Notes under the pieces: model-generated
Database searches by the model: none
Told to the model about the DNA's origin: nothing
The model's input: the letters and a program-made list of their open reading frames with translations, nothing else
From: Charina bottae
Taxonomy: Eukaryota; Chordata; Lepidosauria; Squamata; Charinaidae
Direction: 5' to 3'
Assembly (NCBI GenBank): GCA_023362775.1
Contig: JALMGJ010000004.1
Coordinates: forward strand, 84,474,298-84,538,297
DNA: 64,000 bases
Made by a program: the position numbers and the translations under genes
Shown: in pieces, positions 6,189-62,033 of the stretch
Position numbering within the stretch: the first letter of the stretch is position 1
How the letters are laid out: each line of letters starts with the position of its first letter

Positions 6189-7735
6189 TCCCTGATAAAT
6201 ACGATGGTGTGGTCACTGACCTTGAGCCGGACATCCTAGAGAATGAACTCAAGTGGGCCTTAGGAAGCATTACTAACAACAAAGCTAGCGGAGAAGACAG
6301 TATCCCAGCTGAGCTATTTAAAATCCTAAAAGATGATGCTGTTAAAGTGCTGCACTCAATATGCCAACAAATTTGTAAAACTCAACAGTGGCCACAGGAT
6401 TGGAAAAGGTCAGTTTATGTTCCAATTCCAAAGAAGGGCAATGCCAAAGAATGTTCAAACTACCGTACAATTGCACTCATTTCACATGCTACCAAGCTTA
6501 CACTCAAAATCCTACAACCTAGGCTTCAGCAGTATGTGAACCAAGAACTACCAGAAGTGCAAGCTGGGTTTCAAAGAGGCAGAGGAACTAGGGATCAGAT
6601 TGCCAACATTCGCTGGATCATGGAAAAAGCAAGAGAGTTCCAGAAAAACATCTACTTCTGCTTCATTGACTACACTAAAGCCTTTGATTGTGTGGATCAC
6701 AACAAACTGTGGCAAATTCTTAAAGAGATGGGAGTACCAGACCACCTTACCTGTCTCCTGAGAAACCTGTATGCGGGTCAAGAAGCAACAGTTAGAACCG
6801 GACATGGAACAACCAACTGGTTCAAAATTGGGAAAGGAGTACGACAAGGCTGTATATTATCACCCTGCTTATTTAACTTATATGCAGAGTACATCATGAG
6901 AAATGCCGGGCTGGATGAATCACAAGCCGGAGTTAAGATTGCCGGGAGAAATATCAACAACCTCAGATATGCAGACGATACCACCCTAATGGCAGAAAGT
7001 GAAGAGGAACTAAAGAGCCTCTTGATGAGGGTAAAAGAGGAGAATGCAAAAGCTGGCTTGAAACTCAACATTAAAAAAACTCACATCATGGCATCTGGTC
7101 CCATCACTTCCTGGCAAATAGAAGGGGAAGATATGGAAGCAGTGACAAATTTTATTTTCTTGGGCTCCAAGATCACCGCAGACGGTGACTGCAGCCATGA
7201 AATTTAAAAACGCTTGCTCCTTGGGTGGAAAGCTATGGCAAACATAGACAGCATATTAAAAAGCATAGACATCACCTTGCCGACAAAGGTCCGTATAGTT
7301 AAAGCTATGGTTTTTCCAGTAGTAATGTATGGCTGTGAGAGTTGGACCATAAGGAAGGCTGAGCACCAAAGAAGTGATGCTTTCAAGCTGTGGTGCTGGA
7401 GAAGACTTTGAGAGTCCCTTGGACTGCAAGAAGGTCGAATCAGTCAATCCTAAAGGAAATCAACCCTGACTGCTCATTGGAAGGACAGATATTGAAGCTG
7501 AAACTCAAATAATGTGAAGAGAGGACTCACTGGAAAAGACCCTGATGCTGGGAAAGACTGAGGGCAAAAGGAGAAGGGGACGGCAGAGGATGTGATGGTT
7601 AGATAGCATCACCAATGTAATGACCATGAATTTGAGTAAACTCTGGGAGACAGTAGAGGACAGAAAGGCCTGGTGTGCTATGGTCCATGAGGTTATGAAG
7701 TGTCAGACACGACTAAATGACTGAACAACAACAAC
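6189..7735 (+). mobile_element. BovB LINE (RTE clade), 5'-truncated copy
   Basis: The insertion starts inside the region between endonuclease and RT and runs to the BovB 3' end, finishing in tgactgaacaacaacaacaa. It aligns almost codon for codon with the copy at 37844-39538 on the other strand. The endonuclease is absent because of 5' truncation, the usual product of incomplete target-primed reverse transcription. No clear target-site duplication was found. BovB is known for horizontal transfer among squamates, ruminants and other animals, probably by way of parasites. Confidence 0.93.
6209..7735 (+). pseudogene. BovB reverse transcriptase, broken
   Basis: A 332-codon open segment (6209-7207) carries RT motifs in order: RSVYVPIPKKG, QAGFQRGRGTRDQIANIRW, the first catalytic aspartate in FIDYTKAFD, GVRQGCILSPCLFNLY, and the YADD catalytic box in NLRYADDTTLM. 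A TAA stops it at 7205-7207, just after GDCSHEI. The C-terminal domain continues past the stop (MVFPVVMYGCESWTIRKAE at about 7307), with a frameshift near 7411 and a deletion of about 15 bases near 7510 compared with the better copy. It cannot make a full RT. Confidence 0.93.
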
Positions 7736-11936: not shown

Positions 11937-11952
11937 ACATTTAACTCAGGAC

Positions 11953-12074
11953 TGTGGCTTGAATCATGTCAACTGGATTTCTATTTAAATAGAATAGAAA
12001 TAAATAAATAGAAATCCAGTTGACATGATTCAAGCCACAGACTGTTCCACCTGGATGACTGAGAACCTTCATCG
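11953..12074 (+). mobile_element. Short palindromic retroposon-like element with 16-bp target-site duplication
   Basis: The element starts tgtggcttgaatcatgtcaa, reaches tctattt at about 11986, then after an AT-rich loop of about 19 bases returns as the exact inverse complement (12006-12039, aaatagaaatcc...caagccaca). A unique tail follows (gactgttccacctggatgac... to 12074). It is flanked by acatttaactcaggac (11937-11952) and acatttaacccaggac (12075-12090), a 16-bp duplication with one mismatch. The termini and the tail match the larger palindrome at 29275-29716. No protein is encoded. It is related by sequence to no LINE or SINE here; Penelope-like or fold-back origin is possible. Confidence 0.8.
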
Positions 12075-12113
12075 ACATTTAACCCAGGACAAATTACAAT
12101 TCAAGGGCTATAT

Positions 12114-14346: not shown

Positions 14347-14524
14347 TGTTGAGTGTGTGTTCGGGAGCATGTGCAGAGTTCCAGAAGCAAGTAGCATTAT
14401 AGAGACAAGAAATTATGCCAGACATTTATCAAAACAAAGATGTATTAATATAACAGAGAACACAAAACAATAACATCCGGATCCCTTGAGTTAAAATCTC
14501 TATATAAATATAAAAAGCATATTT
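14347..14524 (-). repeat. Copia 3' LTR, truncated (178 bp)
   Basis: Aligns without gaps to 17125-17302 of the complete LTR, with about 94% identity. It begins tgttgagtg, next to the gggtg target copy. Directly right of 14524 the sequence is pol coding sequence of the RT N-terminal edge, so the LTR's 5' 287 bp are gone. Confidence 0.9.
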
Positions 14525-14526
14525 AA

Positions 14527-15941
14527 TATTTAAGCTAATTCCTGCTGCATTGCCTCATGCCAGCATTTAGCAATTTCAGGTGGCATCTCATTTATTTGCT
14601 GTAAATTTTCAGGTTCAGTGTAAATGTGAAAAGCTTTAACTACATCCACCTCAAAATGTTTAGGAGGAATACAGTACCTTTATTAGTCCTCTGAGACCTG
14701 CAAGGTAGGACAGGACTAACATTCTGACTCCCACCATTTTCCTGAGAAGCCTCTGTCTCATCAGACAGTTCAGCTTGCTCCTCTTGTTTGTTGATTTCAC
14801 TAGGCGAAGAATCTAGCAGACCACCATCAGAAAGTCCTTGCTGTTCCCTTGGTGTTAAGTCAACTGAAGAACTGGAATTTATTTTTTCCCAGTTTTGCTC
14901 AGCAAATGAAGCGCTTTTGCTAATGATTAATTTATCACCTAGTATGAATCTGTAGCTTCTCTGGCTTTGTTCATACCCAACAAAGATAGCTTTCTTTGTT
15001 TTGGAAGCCCCCTTCCATCTCAGTTGCTTAGGAATATGAACCCAAGCTGTGCTACCAAAAATTCTTAGATGATTGACTTTGGGCTTCATACCATAGAACA
15101 GATGAAATGGAGTATCCTCAATCACACAATTAAACAGTCTGTTCTGAATATAACAGGCAGTGGATACTGTTTCACCCCAAAACTTAAAAGGTAGTCATGC
15201 ATATTTAAGCAAGCACATCATGGCTTCTTGAAATGTTCTACATTTTCTCTCAGTAATTCCATTCTGCTGAGGAGTATAAGGGTTAGAAAGAATTTGTTCT
15301 ATCACCTTCTCTGTCAGAAACCTTTTAAAAGCATTAGACAGAAATTCCCGTCTGTCACATTGTAAAGCAGATACAGGTTTTGGAAATTTTCCATTGGCCC
15401 ATATTACAAAACCTTTAAATTTCTCAAATGCCTCATCTTTATGTTTCAACAGATTTATAAATGTATATCTTGGATAATCATCAGCTATGGTCATTATATA
15501 CTTTGCTTGTCCAAGACTTGGGGAAAAGGGACCAATTATATCACAATGAACAGTTTCAAGAGGTCTAGTTGTGATTCTGTCTGCATGCTTGCCCACAGGA
15601 GCTTTATAAGTTTTACATTCCTTACAAATTGTACAATCCAGATATTTGCCACAGGATTTCAATTTTAGATCAGCACACACCTTTGGCATATGTGCAATAT
15701 ATTTAAAATTTGCATGACCAAATCTTCTGTGCATGAGGTGTATGTATTGATCATGAACTGGAATGTTACAAATTACAGCCTTTGCAATTTTAGCAGCATT
15801 CTGCACTATGTACAATGAATCTTTTTGTACACAAGTTGTACACAACTTACCATTCTTCCGTATCTCACAGCCATCTTTTTTAAATGTTATGACATATCCA
15901 GCTGCTACTAACTGGGCTACAGATAAAAGGTTAGTTTGCAA
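14527..15941 (-). pseudogene. Copia pol: integrase and start of RT, broken
   Basis: The frame opens at the classical protease-integrase junction (NLLSVAQL after NVLYVP, with a TAA in place of one codon at about 15942-15944). The zinc-binding HHCC part reads HRRFGH and, downstream, CTICKEC. The catalytic DDE triad is visible: D in CDIIGP, D in LQCDRREF and E in TPQQNGITERK. A TGA interrupts the frame near 15192 after LLKYA. The frame then continues through FGSTAWVHIPKQ and KKAIFVGYE, typical of the integrase C-terminal part, to 14640. A frameshift near 14650 leads into the linker before RT (IAKCWHEAMQQEL), where the deletion begins. Confidence 0.92.
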
Positions 15942-16290
15942 TTACGGGACATACAACACATTTCTAACAGTTTCCTCCAAACAAGATAAATATATATCAC
16001 CTTGACCCATGATTTTAGTCATAGATCCATTAGCTAAAGAAACACTTTGTTTGTTAGTTTTAGACAGTGAAATAAAATAACTTTTACAATTAGACAAGTG
16101 ACAATCTGCACCAGAATCTAATACCCACATATCATCAGAATTACAGTTTTCAAGAACTTGTGCAATATGAATTGTTTGTAGAGCTTTCTTCTTCATTGTC
16201 TCTTTGTTCTTCTTTCCTATCTTTCGACCTTTGTGCATTTGGTCACAGTCTTTGCGTAGATGTCCAGCTGATCCTCAATGAAAACATCTC
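15942..16290 (-). pseudogene. Copia zinc knuckle and aspartic protease, broken
   Basis: On the minus strand at 16245-16286 a CCHC zinc knuckle is seen, with its second cysteine codon changed to TGA (16275-16277). The order C, two residues, stop, then GSAGHLRKDC is otherwise regular. A lysine-rich linker follows, then the protease active site in WVLDSGADCHLSN (D-S-G), and the frame ends at the TAA before the integrase. This frame differs from the gag frame, so a frameshift lies between them. Confidence 0.88.
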
Positions 16291-16317
16291 CAGGTTGCCA
16301 ATGCTGTAGCTTCAGCT

Positions 16318-16938
16318 TCATTCCCCTTTCTCACGCTGCATTTTTCCAGAAGAGCTGGGTGCAAACAACTGTCGGTCCTTTCGTTTCTCCCACTCTGCAA
16401 GCAGCCATGCAGAAACAAACGTAGGAGTAAGATCAGCTTCGCGCATCACTTCTAGGGTGCAAATTAACGTGTCCCATGTTTCATTCAGTGAGGACAGAAT
16501 GATGTATGACTTTGTCAGAGGGGTAAACTCCATGCCTCTTTCCTGCAGTTCTACAAACATCTGCTGAATAGAGTGCAAATGTTCAGACAGACTGCTTTCA
16601 TCTGACAAATAAGCTTTGTACAGATTCCTAGTCAGAGAAACTTTACTTCCCGCAGTAGCTTTTACATATAAATTTCGCAAAGCATCCTATAATTCTTTGG
16701 CAGATTGCGAACCATGCACACTGACTAGCTGATTGTCCTCAACTCCTAAAATAAGAGTCGCTTGGGCACATTCATCTTGCCTTAGCCATGCTTGAATAGG
16801 ATTAACTGGAGTTGGCTCACCTATTGGGGCCCACAGGTCTTCTCTCCGAAGAAACATTTCCATTTTCAGAGCCCAATTCAAATAATTCGAGTCTGAAAGA
16901 TGTTCAAGCAGCATTGCAGAAGATTGAGAAGTCGCCAT
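16318..16938 (-). pseudogene. Copia gag, interrupted by one stop
   Basis: The likely start is MATSQSS at 16938; a methionine six codons upstream is also in frame. Near the N-terminus NYLNWALKMEMFLRREDLW matches the N-terminal copia gag domain. After an in-frame TAG (about 16684-16686, between SAKEL and DALRN), the UBN2-type domain continues with LSEHLHSIQQMFVELQERGM and LTKSYIILSSLNETWD. The frame ends at 16318 in a basic tail before the zinc knuckle. Gag would form the particle; this copy cannot do so. Confidence 0.9.
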
Positions 16939-17110
16939 GTTTCTACTCCTCTTCAAAAATCCTCAGCTCAGCTTCTTCTGAAAACAGGCAGCAGCCAAAA
17001 GCCTCCACGCGGCCTCAAAGAAAGAACCACTTCACCGGTCTTTCTCTTCACTTGCCTTTCAAATGCAAACAAAGTACTTAGCTGGTCTCTTGTGCTCTCT
17101 GCTGCTCTCT

Positions 17111-17123
17111 CTGGGCCCATAAC
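17111..17123 (-). promoter_or_regulatory. Copia primer-binding site: half-tRNA-iMet type
   Basis: The + strand reads ctgggcccataac, which equals bases 27-39 of the vertebrate initiator tRNA-Met (anticodon stem-loop). The element strand is therefore complementary to that part and lies one base from the LTR (17125). Drosophila copia is known to prime from a tRNA-iMet 5' fragment cut after base 39, and the match here ends at that same base. Confidence 0.85.
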
Positions 17124-17124
17124 T

Positions 17125-17589
17125 TGTTGAGTGTGTGTTCTGGAGCATGTGCTAAGTTCCAGAAGCAAGTAGCATTAGAGAGACAAGAAATTACGCCAAG
17201 CATTTATCAAAACGAAGATGTATTAATATAACAGAGAACACAAAACAATAGCATCCAGATCCCTGGAGTTAAAATCTCTATATAAATATAAAAAGCATAT
17301 TTTCAACCTCACCCTCACACACAGGGTTGAGTAAAGCTTACAGGCATTTCTCTGAGAACAGACAAGCAGGGGGGAGGAGGAAAGCTTGAATGCAAGGAGC
17401 ACAATAAAAGACATGCTAATTTATACCTTTGTATCTAGGTTACTGATTGTTAACCTATTTGACCATTTATCTCTACAACCTGGGAAAACAATAAAAGTTT
17501 GAACTCTTGACTCTGCTGATCAATTAACTGGCATCTCTGAGACTTGTCCTGTGACTTCGTTCCTTTGAGCAATAAGACACATACCAACA
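17125..17589 (-). repeat. Copia 5' LTR, complete (465 bp)
   Basis: Bounded by the primer-binding site on the left and the gggtg target copy on the right. The ends tgttg and caaca are inverted repeats. On the minus strand it should hold promoter and polyadenylation signals; several AT-rich blocks are candidates, but none was singled out. Confidence 0.88.
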
Positions 17590-21482: not shown

Positions 21483-21568
21483 ACTGTCTCCTTATTTATT
21501 TCACATTTATGCTGAATATATATATATATTAAGAGAGTCTGGATTGGAGTTATAAAATCAAAAGAACG

Positions 21569-22390
21569 ATGTATAACTTGAACTATGCTGATAAAAACTA
21601 TGATAAATCTGCACTATGCAGATATGCAGATGATACCACTTTGATGACTGAAAGCGAGGAGGAGCTGAGGAGCCTTATGATGAAGGTGAAAGAAGAAAGC
21701 GCAAAAGCTGGGTTGCAGTTAAACCTCAAAAAAAACAAGATTATGGCAATGAGCTTGATTGATAACTGGCAAATAGAGGGAGAAAAAGTGGAGGCAGTGA
21801 CAGACTTTGTATTTCTAGGCGCAAAAATTACTGCAGACGCTGACTGCAACCAGGAAATCAGAAGACATCTACTTCTTGGGAGGAGAGCAATGACAAATCT
21901 TGATAAAATTGTTAAGAGCAGAGACATCACACTGACAACAAAGATCTGCATAGTCAAAGCAATGGTATTCCCCGTAGTAACCTATGGCTGTGAGAGCTGG
22001 ACCATAAGGAAGGCTGAGCGAAGGAAGATAGATGCTTTTGAACTGTGGTGTTGGAGGAAAATTCTGAGTGCCTTGGACTTCAAGAAGATCAAACTAGTCC
22101 ATACTCCAGTAAATAAATCCAGACTGCTCACCTGAGGGAATGATATTAAAGGCAAAACTGAAGTACTTTGGCCACATAATGAGCAGACAGGATACCCTGG
22201 AGAAGATGCTGATGCTAGGGAAAGTGGAAGGCAAAAGGAAGAGGGGCCAACCAAGGGCAAGATTGATGGATGATATTCTGGAGGTTACGGACTCGACCAT
22301 GGGGGAGCTGGGGATGGCGACGGCTGACAGGAAGCTCTGGTGTGGGCTGGTCCATGAAGTCACGAAGAGTCGGAAGCGACTGAATGAATA
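21569..22390 (+). pseudogene. RTE reverse transcriptase C-terminal part
   Basis: A 188-codon frame (21569-22135) holds the YADD catalytic box in CRYADDTTLM, then LQLNLKKNKIM, FVFLGAKITADADCNQEI and MVFPVVTYGCESWTIRKAE. It ends early at a TGA near 22133. The rest of the C-terminus (LKYFGHIMSRQDTLEKMLM, then RKRGQPRARLMDDI) is readable at 22140-22391 in another frame. Confidence 0.88.
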
Positions 22391-29017: not shown

Positions 29018-29940
29018 CACCAAAAGTGCCTGGGGAAAGAGCCAGGTCTTAACTGTCTTTCTCAAGGCCTGGAAATTTGGAGCCAACAATACATTGGGGG
29101 AGGTCATTCCAAAGATGAAGGGCTGCCATTGAGAAGGCACACCCTCTGGATCCCACAAGGTGACATTGTTTAAAAAAAAAGGAGCTGGAACTTGTGGAAT
29201 GGGCAGATAGCCTTGGGAGAAGATGGTCCCCCAAATAGCCCAGTCCTGTGCCATGTAGAGCTTTATTGGTGATATGTCTATGAAGGTTCTCAGTCATCCA
29301 GGTGGAATTGTCTGTAGCTTGAATCATGTCAACTGGATTTCTATTTTCTTAGTGGAAACGTTTTGCTCCTTATCCAAGGAGCTTCTTCAGTCTGAGCAAA
29401 GTTGGTAAGGGAATCCTAAATATGTTTCTAGGTAGCTGTGTGACCTTACACCTGGGGGCATGGTTATATTGAGATGTTATTTTAAGTCCTTTTATTATCT
29501 AAAGGAGGTTGATGACGATCCTCCTTTAGATAATAAAAGGACTTAAAATAACATCTCAATATAACCATGTCCCCAGGTGTAAGGTCACACAGCTACCTAG
29601 AAACATATTTAGGATTCCCTTACCAACTTTGCTCAGACTGAAGAAGCTCCTTGGATAAGGAGTGAAACGTTTCCACTAAGAAAATAGAAATCCAGTTGAC
29701 ATGATTCAAGCTACAGTTTATAGGTGATAATTAGCTTAAATTGCACCCAGAAGCCTGTAGGGAGCCAATGTAGCTTGTAGAAGAGGTGTTACATGGCCTT
29801 AACAAGGCATGCCCATAACTACCTGCAGTGTTGCCTTCTGGACTAGTTGAACTTCTGGATGGTTTTCAAGGACAGCCCCATATAGTACTTTGCAATACAG
29901 TAATCCAATGAGGCTCCCCCTGACCCAGGAAAAGGCACAA
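29018..29940 (-). pseudogene. CR1/L2-group LINE, RT C-terminal region, split by a palindromic element
   Basis: The minus-strand frame (29049-29327) contains KALHGTGLGYLGDHLLP and AFSMAALHLWNDLPQ, hallmark blocks of the CR1/L2 RT C-terminus. After the inserted palindrome (29275-29716) the element resumes at 29730 with 'gcacccagaagcctgtagggagccaatgta' and 'agccccatatagtactttgcaatacagtaatcc'. Decayed, with no full frame. Confidence 0.82.
29275..29716 (-). mobile_element. 442-bp palindromic retroposon-like element with 13-bp target-site duplication
   Basis: Arms 29313-29508 and 29520-29715, each 196 bases, are inverse complements with only about three mismatches, around an 11-base loop (ttgatgacgat). 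A 36-base unique tail (29275-29312) adjoins the left arm. Target copies tttattggtgata (29262-29274) and tttataggtgata (29717-29729) flank it, and the host CR1 reads through when it is removed. On the minus strand it starts within a base of tgtagcttgaatcatgtcaa and ends in a tail with ccacctggatgactgagaac, the same ends as the small element at 11953-12074. Each arm carries ctgaaga, a short hairpin (ctccttggataaggag) and gaaacg. No protein is encoded. Penelope-like or fold-back origin is possible. Confidence 0.85.
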
Positions 29941-33577: not shown

Positions 33578-34105
33578 ATTGAATTATATTAATTAACTAA
33601 TTAATTAGATTTATATAGCTGCCCAACTCACCATAGCCACTATGGGCAGCTACCAACAAATAAAACACCATACAAAATAACACCTCAAAAGCAACTAATA
33701 TACTGTATAAAATTTATAATGATCACCAAGGTAAAAACAGATCTAATAATCTAAAAATATCCTATGGGCTCCAGATAACCTCCCAATGCCTGGGAACATA
33801 TTCAGGTCTTTAAGGCTTTTCAGACATCTGGCAATATTGGGGCCAATCTAATCTTGGGGGTATTCCAAAGGACAGGTGGTGTGTCAGAAAATGATCATCT
33901 TTTGGGTCCCACAGGATGACATTCTTTAATTGTCAGAACCTTCAGCATGCTTTTCCTGCCAGATCTGATGAGACATGTAAAAACAACATGGGAGAGGTAG
34001 TCCCAGAAATAATCCAGCCCCATGCCATGAAGGGCTTTAAATAAGACAACCAGCAGCTTGAATTGTACCTGATAGCATGTTGGAAGCCAGCATATTAGAG
34101 ATTGA
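33578..34105 (-). pseudogene. CR1/L2-group LINE 3' end, minus strand
   Basis: The left edge holds (TTAA)n-like units and 'agctgcccaactcaccatagc', the antisense 3' tail. Further right the minus-strand frame (33895-34215) gives LLVVLFKALHGMGLDYFWDYL, the 'KALHGLGPxYLxD' block of CR1/L2 RT. Decayed. Confidence 0.75.
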
Positions 34106-37843: not shown

Positions 37844-39538
37844 TTGTTGTTGTTGTTCAGTCGTTCAGTCGTGTCCGACTCTTCGTGACCTCATGGACCA
37901 TAGCACGCCAGGCCTTCCTGTCCTCCACTGTCTCTCGGAGTTTACTCAAATTCATGTTCATTACATTGGTGATGCTATCTAACCATCTCATCCTCTGCCG
38001 TCCCCTTCTCCTTTTGCCCTCAGTCTTTCCCAGCATCAGGGTCTTTTCCAGTGAGTCCTCTCTTCTCATTAGGTGGCCAAAGTATTTGAGCTTCAGCTTC
38101 AGCATCTGTCCTTCCAATGAGCAGTCAGGGTTGATTTCCTTCAGGATTGACTGGTTTGACCTCCTTGCAGTCCAAGGGACTCTCAAGAGTCTTCTCCAGC
38201 ACCACAGCTCGAAAGCATCAATTCTTCGGCGCTCAGCCTTCCTTATGGTCCAACTCTCACAGCCATACATTGCTACTGGAAAAACCATAGCTTTAACTAT
38301 ACGGACCTTTGTCGGCAAGGTGATGTCTCTGCTTTTTAATATGCTGTCTAGGTTTGCCATAGCTTTCCTTCCAAGGAGCAAGCGTCTTTTAATTTCATGG
38401 CTGCAGTCACCGTCTGCGGTGATCTTGGAGCCCAAGAAAATGAAATCTGTCACTGCTTCCATTTCTTCCCCTTCTATTTGCCAGGAAGTGATGGGACCAG
38501 ATGCCATGATCTGGGTTTTTTTAATGTTGAGTTTCAAGCCAGCTTTTGCACTCTCCTCTTTCACCCTCATCAAGAGGCTCTTTAGTTCCTCTTCACTTTC
38601 TGCCATTAGGGTGGTATCGTCTGCATATCTGAGGTTGTTGATATTTTTCCCGGCAATCTTAACTCCGGCTTGTGATTCATCCAGCCCGGCATTTCTCATG
38701 ATGTACTCTGCATATAAGTTAAATAAGCAGGGTGATAATATACAGCCTTGTCGTACTCCTTTCCCAATTTTGAACCAGTCGGTTGTTCCATGTCCGGTTC
38801 TAACTGTTGCTTCTTGACCCACATACAGGTTTCTCAGGAGACAGGTAAGGTGGTCTGGTACTCCCATCTCTTTAAGAATTTGCCACAGTTTGTTGTGATC
38901 CACAAAATCAAAGGCTTTAGCGTAGTCAATGAAGCAGAAGTAGATGTTTTTCTGGAACTCTCTTGCTTTTTCCATGATCCAGCGAATGTTGGCAATCTGA
39001 TCTCTAGTTCCTCTGCCTCTTCGAAACCCAGCTTGCACTTCTGGTAGTTCTCGGTTCACATGCTGCTGAAGCCTAGCTTGTAGGATTTTGAGCATAACCT
39101 TGCTGGCATGTGAAATGAGCGCAATTGTACGGTAGTTTGAACATTCTTTGGCATTGCCTTTCTTTGGAATTGGAACGTAAACTGACCTTTTCCAATCCTG
39201 TGGCCACTGTTGAGTTTTCCAAATTTGTTGGCATATTGAGTGCAGCACTTTAACAGCATCATCTTTTAGGATTTTAAATAGCTCAGCTGGGATACTGTCT
39301 TCTCCGCTAGCTTTGTTGTTAGTAATGCTTCCTAAGGCCCACTTGACTTCACTCTCTAGGATGTCCGGCTCAAGGTCAGTGACCACACCATCGTATTTAT
39401 CAGGGATATTAAGATCTTTCTTGTATAGTTCTTCTGTGTATTCTTGCCACCTCTTCTTAATCTCTTCTGCTTCTGTTAGGTCCCTGCCTTTTTTGTCCTT
39501 TATCATGCCCATCTTTGCACAAAGAGGGTAAAGAGGTA
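37844..39538 (-). mobile_element. BovB LINE (RTE clade), 5'-truncated, long intact frame
   Basis: About 1.7 kb on the minus strand. The 3' end, at the left, is the typical 'gactgaacgactgaacaacaacaa'. Copies of caaagaggt at 37835-37843 and 39539-39547 are a likely 9-bp target duplication; the right side also has near-copies (aaagaggg, taaagaggt), so its exact edge is uncertain. The 5' end stops upstream of RT, so the endonuclease is absent. With no stop over 551 codons, this is the youngest-looking element of the window. Confidence 0.95.
37857..39512 (-). CDS. BovB reverse transcriptase, C-terminal 551 codons, uninterrupted
   Basis: The frame starts at an internal methionine (MGMIKDKKGRDLTEAEEI) because the insertion is 5'-truncated; the true ORF start and the N-terminal endonuclease are not present. 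RT motifs in order: SVYVPIPKKG (about 110-119), QAGFRRGRGTRDQIANIRW (160-178), first catalytic Asp in CFIDYAKAFD (193-202), GVRQGCILSPCLFNLYAEYI (252-271) and the YADD box (296-299). Then come FIFLGSKITADGDCSHEIKR and the C-terminal block MYGCESWTIRKAERRRIDAF, with a basic segment (EGKRRRGRQRMRWLD) near residue 510. It would copy RNA at a nicked target, but without the endonuclease and a 5' promoter it is unlikely to be autonomous. Confidence 0.92.
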   Translation of the reverse strand: MGMIKDKKGRDLTEAEEIKKRWQEYTEELYKKDLNIPDKYDGVVTDLEPDILESEVKWALGSITNNKASGEDSIPAELFKILKDDAVKVLHSICQQIWKTQQWPQDWKRSVYVPIPKKGNAKECSNYRTIALISHASKVMLKILQARLQQHVNRELPEVQAGFRRGRGTRDQIANIRWIMEKAREFQKNIYFCFIDYAKAFDFVDHNKLWQILKEMGVPDHLTCLLRNLYVGQEATVRTGHGTTDWFKIGKGVRQGCILSPCLFNLYAEYIMRNAGLDESQAGVKIAGKNINNLRYADDTTLMAESEEELKSLLMRVKEESAKAGLKLNIKKTQIMASGPITSWQIEGEEMEAVTDFIFLGSKITADGDCSHEIKRRLLLGRKAMANLDSILKSRDITLPTKVRIVKAMVFPVAMYGCESWTIRKAERRRIDAFELWCWRRLLRVPWTARRSNQSILKEINPDCSLEGQMLKLKLKYFGHLMRREDSLEKTLMLGKTEGKRRRGRQRMRWLDSITNVMNMNLSKLRETVEDRKAWRAMVHEVTKSRTRLND

Positions 39539-61690: not shown

Positions 61691-61758
61691 TTCAAATGGA
61701 AAGCTCTGTGCACATTGTAGGGATATCTAACTGTTTTGGTTTATTTTGAAGTGGGATA

Positions 61759-62033
61759 AGGGTTGAAGAATGTTCACCTGGTTTGCTTTAAGGATTTGTT
61801 TTATGCTATTTGCTTTTAAAGATTTGGATTTACTGTTTTGAATTGGCTTTGCTTTTTGGGTTTTTTAAGATTAAAATTATTAAAACTGTTGAATTAGGGT
61901 TAAAGAATGTTTATCTGGTTTGCTTTAAGGATTTGATTGATGTTATTCCCTTTTAAAGATATGGAATTACTGTTTTGAATTGTCTTTGTTTTTTGGGTTT
62001 ATTAAGATTGGGATTATTAAAATTGTTGTACTA
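61759..62033 (+). repeat. Tandem duplication of about 138 bp in the 3'UTR of copy B
   Basis: Unit 1 (61759-61896) and unit 2 (61899-62033) both run from 'gggtt(g/a)aagaatgtt(c/t)a(c/t)ctggtttgctttaaggattt' to 'ttttttgggttt(t/a)ttaagatt' and 'attattaaaa(c/t)tgttg'. Copy A has only one unit, interrupted by the nested L1 tail, so the duplication is specific to copy B or its source. Confidence 0.75.

What the first reader, a model, noticed from the sequence alone, without database searches (positions are those of the whole stretch)
29275..29716. Near-perfect 196-bp-arm palindrome inserted as a unit, with 13-bp target-site duplication
Seen directly: two equal 196-base arms with about three mismatches, an 11-base loop, a 36-base unilateral tail, and flanking 13-bp copies (one mismatch) inside a CR1/L2 whose sequence rejoins when the insert is removed. 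DNA fold-back transposons usually leave shorter fixed-length duplications, while 13-16 bp duplications fit target-primed reverse transcription. A retroposon made of a head-to-head dimer is unusual. Penelope-like elements are known to show inverted terminal copies and variable target duplications, so a PLE-derived non-autonomous family is my leading guess.
Basis: partly seen in the sequence, partly recalled or inferred. Interest (0 to 1): 0.78.

Follow-up and report, generated by a model that had tools for sequence, protein, structure and literature searches.

The report
Penelope-type inverted pLTR dimer
This near-perfect DNA palindrome looks like a short insertion left by a Penelope-like retrotransposon, whose known habit is to insert two copies of its end region head to head; a second, smaller example in the same window has the same ends, so the find is a clean example of a known kind of element.

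Summary
Confirmed: a 442-bp insert (29275-29716) made of a 37-nt tail, a 197-nt arm, an 11-nt loop and a 197-nt arm (3 mismatches), flanked by 13-bp duplications with one mismatch. The window holds a second, independent insert of the same design at 11952-12077. It has 36-nt arms, a 17-nt centre, a 37-nt tail on the other side and a 12-bp duplication, and it starts and ends at the same two element positions. The palindrome is therefore a recurrent insertion product, not a local rearrangement. The anatomy matches published Penelope-like elements (PLEs): head-to-head inverted pLTRs of about 180-220 bp, a 30-40-nt tail on one of them, short target duplications and a minimal hammerhead motif. A hammerhead-like core lies in arm B. 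Best mechanism: two staggered nicks each prime a cDNA, one from each of two adjacent start sites on the RNA, and the cDNAs join at their inner ends. No full-length relative, reverse transcriptase or GIY-YIG gene could be examined; the genome search did not complete.

The parts
29262..29274 (.). left target-site duplication, 13 bp
   Evidence: sequence
29275..29311 (-). unilateral 37-nt tail (3' side of the element in its sense, read on the - strand); outer end = distal RT start site by analogy with Poseidon of Anolis
   Evidence: PMC11167929
29312..29508 (-). arm A, 197 nt, pLTR in - orientation
29360..29390 (-). hammerhead-like core in arm A, changed at two bases (CAAAAC instead of TGAAAC), so it fails the strict pattern
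29509..29519 (.). 11-nt centre between the arms
29520..29716 (+). arm B, 197 nt, pLTR in + orientation; outer end = proximal RT start site by analogy
29638..29668 (+). minimal hammerhead ribozyme core CTGANGA-stem II-GAAAC in arm B; cut expected at 29671/29672 by the general hammerhead rule (recalled)
   Evidence: the only such motif in 64 kb, 0.067 expected; pattern written after the motif was seen
29717..29729 (.). right target-site duplication, 13 bp
11940..11951 (.). copy 2: left target-site duplication TTTAACTCAGGA, 12 bp
11952..11987 (-). copy 2: arm without tail, 36 nt
11988..12004 (.). copy 2: 17-nt A/T-rich centre, repeats of AATAGAA(A)T type
12005..12040 (+). copy 2: arm, 36 nt, 100% complementary to the other arm
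12041..12077 (+). copy 2: unilateral tail, 37 nt, on the opposite side from copy 1
12078..12089 (.). copy 2: right target-site duplication TTTAACCCAGGA

Best explanation
Both inserts are truncated insertions of a Penelope-like element: two pLTR pieces joined head to head, with the element's 3'-side RT start sites facing outward. Shown: the outer ends fall at the same two element positions in both copies (CYACAG| without tail, CATMGACA| with tail), the tail is on one side only, the unpaired centre is short (11 and 17 nt), and the target is duplicated (13 and 12 bp). Inferred: the GIY-YIG/RT enzyme, probably a dimer, cuts both target strands with a 12-13-nt stagger. Each 3' end primes reverse transcription of the element RNA, one from the distal and one from the proximal of two adjacent start sites. 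Both cDNAs run to the same RNA 5' end, where they are joined with a few extra bases. Filling the stagger gives the duplication. I give about 0.9 to the PLE identity and about 0.55 to the two-primer mechanism in this form.
For: Two of two copies found share ends, tail length (37 nt) and duplication class; blastn of arm plus tail against the window gave no further locus better than E 0.05. Published PLE anatomy fits: 181-218-bp pLTRs, an inverted pLTR, a 31-bp tail optionally on one of the inverted pLTRs, 8-10-bp duplications in Adineta. In Poseidon of Anolis the tail is 30-40 bp and corresponds to the stretch between two RT start sites, both strands are cut and extended, and the protein is predicted to be a dimer. 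The hammerhead-like core is the only one in 64 kb (0.067 expected). Its expected cut lies 26 nt after the start of stem II, the distance printed for Poseidon, and the distal end lies 108 nt after it, against 111-118 in Poseidon. One frame runs open through the arm-tail boundary in both copies, as published for the PLE ORF start.
Against: No protein or reference sequence of this family was compared. None of 59 stop-to-stop ORFs of 90 aa or more in the window matched a GIY-YIG family at the E-values used (0.001; 0.1). No Rfam hammerhead family was among 27 matches at E up to 10, and nothing in the window reached gathering score. Poseidon's ORF is printed as starting at stem II; here the three frames from stem II meet a stop at codons 5, 20 and 14, so the ORF start differs or the copy is decayed. 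Poseidon cuts AT-rich DNA; site 1 is 58% AT and site 2 69%, against 63% for the window, so no clear preference. Some published PLE copies with inverted pLTRs have no duplication. Both copies have nearly equal arms, which independent truncation of two cDNAs would not predict; a shared RNA 5' end or self-priming is needed.
Confidence: 0.85

Rival explanations
1. PLE insertion whose palindrome arises by self-priming: a template or first cDNA snaps back at its end and copies itself, as proposed in 2013 for Penelope on an antisense template.
For: Arms are nearly equal in both copies (centres of 11 and 17 nt), and the centre of copy 2 holds a palindromic CTATTTAAATAG (sequence). The 2013 paper argues for self-priming from palindromes at inverted junctions.
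Against: Snap-back copying should also copy the tail and run into the target; both copies stop at the arm-tail boundary, which fits a second RT start site.
Confidence: 0.3
2. A DNA foldback transposon or MITE with long terminal inverted repeats.
For: Long inverted arms with a small loop and target duplications.
Against: The outermost 37 nt exist on one end only, so the termini are not inverted repeats. Duplication lengths differ (13 and 12). Arm length differs five-fold between copies while the outer ends stay fixed.
Confidence: 0.04
3. A unique local rearrangement (inverted duplication) of this locus.
For: Nothing specific beyond the palindrome itself.
Against: A second copy with the same ends 17 kb away, target duplications, and a host repeat that lines up across the site without the insert.
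Confidence: 0.01
4. A hammerhead-bearing non-autonomous retroposon (metazoan retrozyme type) mobilised by a PLE.
For: A hammerhead-like core without a long ORF; a review proposes PLEs/Terminons as likely mobilisers of non-LTR retrozymes (passages).
Against: The motif is minimal (no loop on helix III), as described for PLEs rather than most retrozymes, and a frame is open across the arm-tail boundary in both copies (weak).
Confidence: 0.06

Closest known systems
Poseidon of Anolis carolinensis (PAc, Penelope/Poseidon clade; PMC11167929)
   Same: Tail of 30-40 nt between two RT start sites; hammerhead with cut 26 nt after stem II start; distal start 108 nt (here) against 111-118 nt after stem II start; both target strands cut and extended, which would explain an inverted dimer.
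   Different: No sequence comparison was possible; the ORF start at stem II is not seen here; PAc is described as tandem elements, here only short inverted pLTR dimers.
Adineta vaga Pen2a and related Penelope families (PMC3846280)
   Same: Head-to-head inverted pLTRs of 181-218 bp, optional 31-bp tail on one of them, target duplication (8-10 bp in the cases read; absent in some).
   Different: There the inverted pLTRs bound an element with an ORF or captured DNA; here the insert is the two arms, tail and centre and nothing else. Duplication is 12-13 bp here.
Penelope of Drosophila virilis
   Same: Same structural class by the papers' account (tail, pLTR, GIY-YIG/RT).
   Different: Not compared by sequence; known here only from passages in the papers read.

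Membership tests
Endonuclease-bearing Penelope-like elements (PLE) | telomerase-like reverse transcriptase of PLE type | not testable with these tools
   Insert has no long ORF; the own-genome search did not complete
Endonuclease-bearing Penelope-like elements (PLE) | GIY-YIG endonuclease domain | not testable with these tools
   None in 59 window ORFs of 90 aa or more, but these copies are pLTR only
Endonuclease-bearing Penelope-like elements (PLE) | pLTRs, often with an inverted pLTR head to head | tested here: met
   Arms 197/197 and 36/36, outer ends shared; published 181-218 bp
Endonuclease-bearing Penelope-like elements (PLE) | optional tail of 30-40 nt on one inverted pLTR | tested here: met
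   37 nt in both copies, one side only; published
Endonuclease-bearing Penelope-like elements (PLE) | short target-site duplications of variable length (not in every copy) | tested here: met
   13 and 12 bp, one mismatch each
Endonuclease-bearing Penelope-like elements (PLE) | minimal hammerhead ribozyme motif in the pLTR, sense towards the tail | tested here: met
   Sequence motif only: pattern with 7-bp stem II at 29638-29668 (pattern written after seeing it); arm A fails the strict pattern; no Rfam hammerhead match; activity untested
Foldback / MITE DNA transposon | inverted repeats reach both termini, fixed-length duplication | tested here: not met
   37-nt tail on one end only; duplications 13 and 12 bp

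The most novel reading that the evidence does not exclude
Inverted PLE dimers record how one RNA is copied twice: two primers from the staggered cut use the two start sites of the same RNA (hence exactly one tail and equal inner ends), and in short dimers such as copy 2 the inner end is set by hammerhead self-cleavage of that RNA. Copy 2's arms match the element over 35 nt, the right one over 40 nt with two more mismatches, against 45 nt from the expected cut to the proximal end, so they end 5-10 nt short of it; with a 2-base gap the left arm can also be aligned to 2 nt beyond the cut, so its inner end is not sharply defined. If genome-wide inner ends cluster at the cut, this would be a genomic footprint of ribozyme cleavage in vivo.
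Probability: 0.12. Interest if true: 0.6.

Novelty: new member of a known kind. Interest (0 to 1): 0.33.

Why it matters
[quoted passage not shown] Short inverted dimers with clean duplications are simple records of those steps. Their two outer ends report the two RT start sites, and their inner ends report where copying stopped. A survey of such dimers could separate two-primer synthesis from self-priming and test whether the hammerhead cuts the template in vivo.

Tried and rejected
Local rearrangement: rejected by the second copy. DNA foldback element: rejected because the ends are not inverted and the duplications vary. miRNA or other Rfam families: 27 matches at E up to 10 in 29200-29800, 14 of them miRNA families, the rest snoRNA, bacterial sRNA and the like, all below gathering score, as one would expect of a long hairpin; 0 in the window at gathering score. 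Fold of arm A as RNA, + strand (the antisense of the element): z-score -0.61, nothing special. Pfam matches below the curated cut-off to unrelated families, one of them in an ORF overlapping the left end of the insert (E 0.013), were taken as chance. Relatives in public collections: genome contigs, two exact patterns, 0 hits each. Viral contigs, five exact patterns, gave 0, 8, 2, 0 and 0 stretches; at E up to 0.01 these 10 stretches match only over 16-26 bases at the pattern (one search lists shorter chance matches) and were taken as chance. Paper text search for a 15-base stretch of the tail in both orientations: 0 papers.

A dispersed search in the source genome, the most useful test, could not be made: the genome search answered 'busy or cannot be reached' 14 times of 14.

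Full report
What is there. The finding is real. Arms 29312-29508 and 29520-29716 are 197 nt each, 98% complementary and 11 nt apart, with three mismatches. Two of the three are adjacent bases, CA in one arm and TG in the other, as expected if one CpG decayed in opposite ways after insertion (inference). A 37-nt tail (29275-29311) is attached to arm A only. The flanks are TTTATTGGTGATA and TTTATAGGTGATA. Of 200,000 random border pairs in the window, 27 gave a duplication of 13 bp or more with at most one mismatch. When the flanks are joined with one duplication, another copy of the host repeat at 33989-34089 aligns across the junction (70 of 102 columns identical, 4 gap columns, 3 of them at the junction, E 6e-9); it has no insert there, only 3 bases more.

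A second copy. The general repeat search showed that 12001-12084 matches the tail and outer arm. Reading that stretch and a search for close inverted repeats show a second complete insert: arm 11952-11987, 17-nt centre, arm 12005-12040 (36 nt, 100% complementary), tail 12041-12077 (37 nt), flanked by TTTAACTCAGGA and TTTAACCCAGGA (12 bp; up to 16 if the shared bases next to it are counted). The tool listed the two inserts first and second of 59 close-range inverted pairs, 25 of them shown. Blastn of arm plus tail against the window gave these two loci and otherwise only matches at E 0.05 or worse. Over the 77 nt shared by the two copies the identity is 92%. They have the same tailless end (CYACAG), the same tailed end (CATMGACA) and the same tail length, but arms of 197 and 36 nt. 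Fixed outer ends with variable inner ends are what target-primed reverse transcription with defined start sites gives. They are not what a transposase acting on inverted termini gives.

Comparison with Penelope-like elements. In Adineta vaga Penelope, an inverted pLTR next to the direct one, pLTRs of 181-218 bp, a 31-bp tail optionally on one of the inverted pLTRs, and duplications of 8-10 bp are described, the structure being called typical also for flies and fish; some copies have no duplication (PMC3846280, passages, sections 11 and 6 read). Head-to-head is called the most frequent arrangement. A curation guide lists inverted pLTRs and short 3' extensions as PLE peculiarities (PMC8969392, passages). 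For Poseidon of Anolis, purified protein cuts and extends both target strands. RT starts at two adjacent internal sites, and the stretch between them corresponds to the tail of 30-40 bp. [quoted passage not shown]

Hammerhead motif. In the sense that runs towards the tail, arm B holds CTGAAGA, one unpaired A, a 7-bp stem II (one G-U pair) and GAAAC at 29638-29668. This is the only match on either strand of 64 kb to a pattern that I wrote after seeing the motif; 60 random sequences of the same length gave 4 (0.067 each). Arm A has CAAAAC there and fails the strict pattern. With the cut placed by the general hammerhead rule (recalled), it lies 26 nt after the start of stem II; the proximal and distal outer ends lie 71 and 108 nt after it. 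Rfam gave no hammerhead match. Reviews say that PLE hammerheads are minimal and lack helix III or tertiary contacts (PMC6155905 and PMC7761336, passages). The original papers on this (Cervera and de la Pena 2014; Lunse 2017) and Craig 2021 are not held and were not seen.

Coding trace. One of three frames is open for 24 codons from the arm through the tail in copy 1 (...MIQATDNSTWMTENLHR), and the same frame, translated from the same ATG, is open in copy 2 (MIQATDCSTWMTENLHR). The other two frames have stops. An open stretch this short is weak evidence, but a PLE ORF is published as starting inside the pLTR and running through the tail. Against a close match to Poseidon, the three frames from stem II meet a stop at codons 5, 20 and 14.

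Mechanism. Shown by sequence: two fixed outer ends, one tail per insert (two of two), nearly equal arms (two of two), target duplication (two of two). Known from the Anolis work: both strands are cut and extended, there are two start sites, and a dimer is predicted. Inferred: each nick primes one cDNA from one start site and the cDNAs join at the 5' end of the RNA. Symmetry suggests that both cDNAs copied the same RNA end. Self-priming explains the symmetry equally well, but not why both copies stop exactly at the tail boundary. Copy 2's arms match the element to 5-10 nt short of the expected hammerhead cut (45 nt from cut to proximal end; 35 nt matched, or 40 nt with two more mismatches on the right); a gapped alignment of the left side runs 2 nt past the cut, in A/T-rich sequence. 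This is one case and only suggestive.

Limits. Only two copies were seen, both in this window. The own-genome search gave no answer in 14 of 14 tries. Exact-pattern scans of the prokaryote and viral collections found no relatives. All 59 stop-to-stop ORFs of 90 aa or more were scanned against Pfam: no GIY-YIG, and three ORFs with RVT_1 that lie in repeats of one another elsewhere in the window. PLE identity therefore rests on anatomy, not on a protein.

Verdict. A well-preserved example of a known PLE insertion structure, with a second example that makes the identification solid. New member of a known kind. Its use is as material for a survey of how PLE dimers form.

Noticed in passing
window 14347-17302: Copia-type remnant on the - strand (gag, Pol_BBD, pre-integrase/rve, SH3 domains at 14640-16962; some near or below the curated cut-off) between 178-nt direct repeats 14347-14524 and 17125-17302 (94%) that look like LTRs. 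No RVT_2 match among the 59 ORFs of 90 aa or more, so it may be a deletion derivative without reverse transcriptase; shorter ORFs were not scanned.
   Followed up: partly
window 6189-7407 and 38188-39406: Two RVT_1-bearing copies of a retroelement (LINE type is my guess), 97% alike over 1219 nt, in opposite orientation about 31 kb apart; a third, more diverged copy with RVT_1 at 21533-22132.
   Followed up: no
window 61751-62024: Tandem duplication of a 137-nt unit, 85% alike.
   Followed up: no
window 11988-12004: The centre of copy 2 is an A/T-rich run of AATAGAA(A)T-like repeats; it could be filler added at the join or later slippage at a perfect palindrome.
   Followed up: partly
window 29275-29311 and 29709-29716: In copy 1 both outer ends lie at an AGACA motif of the element (CTACAG|ACA and CATAGACA|), a possible shared RT start signal; copy 2 has CCACAG|ACT and CATCGACA|, so the motif is not kept in full and chance is not excluded.
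   Followed up: no
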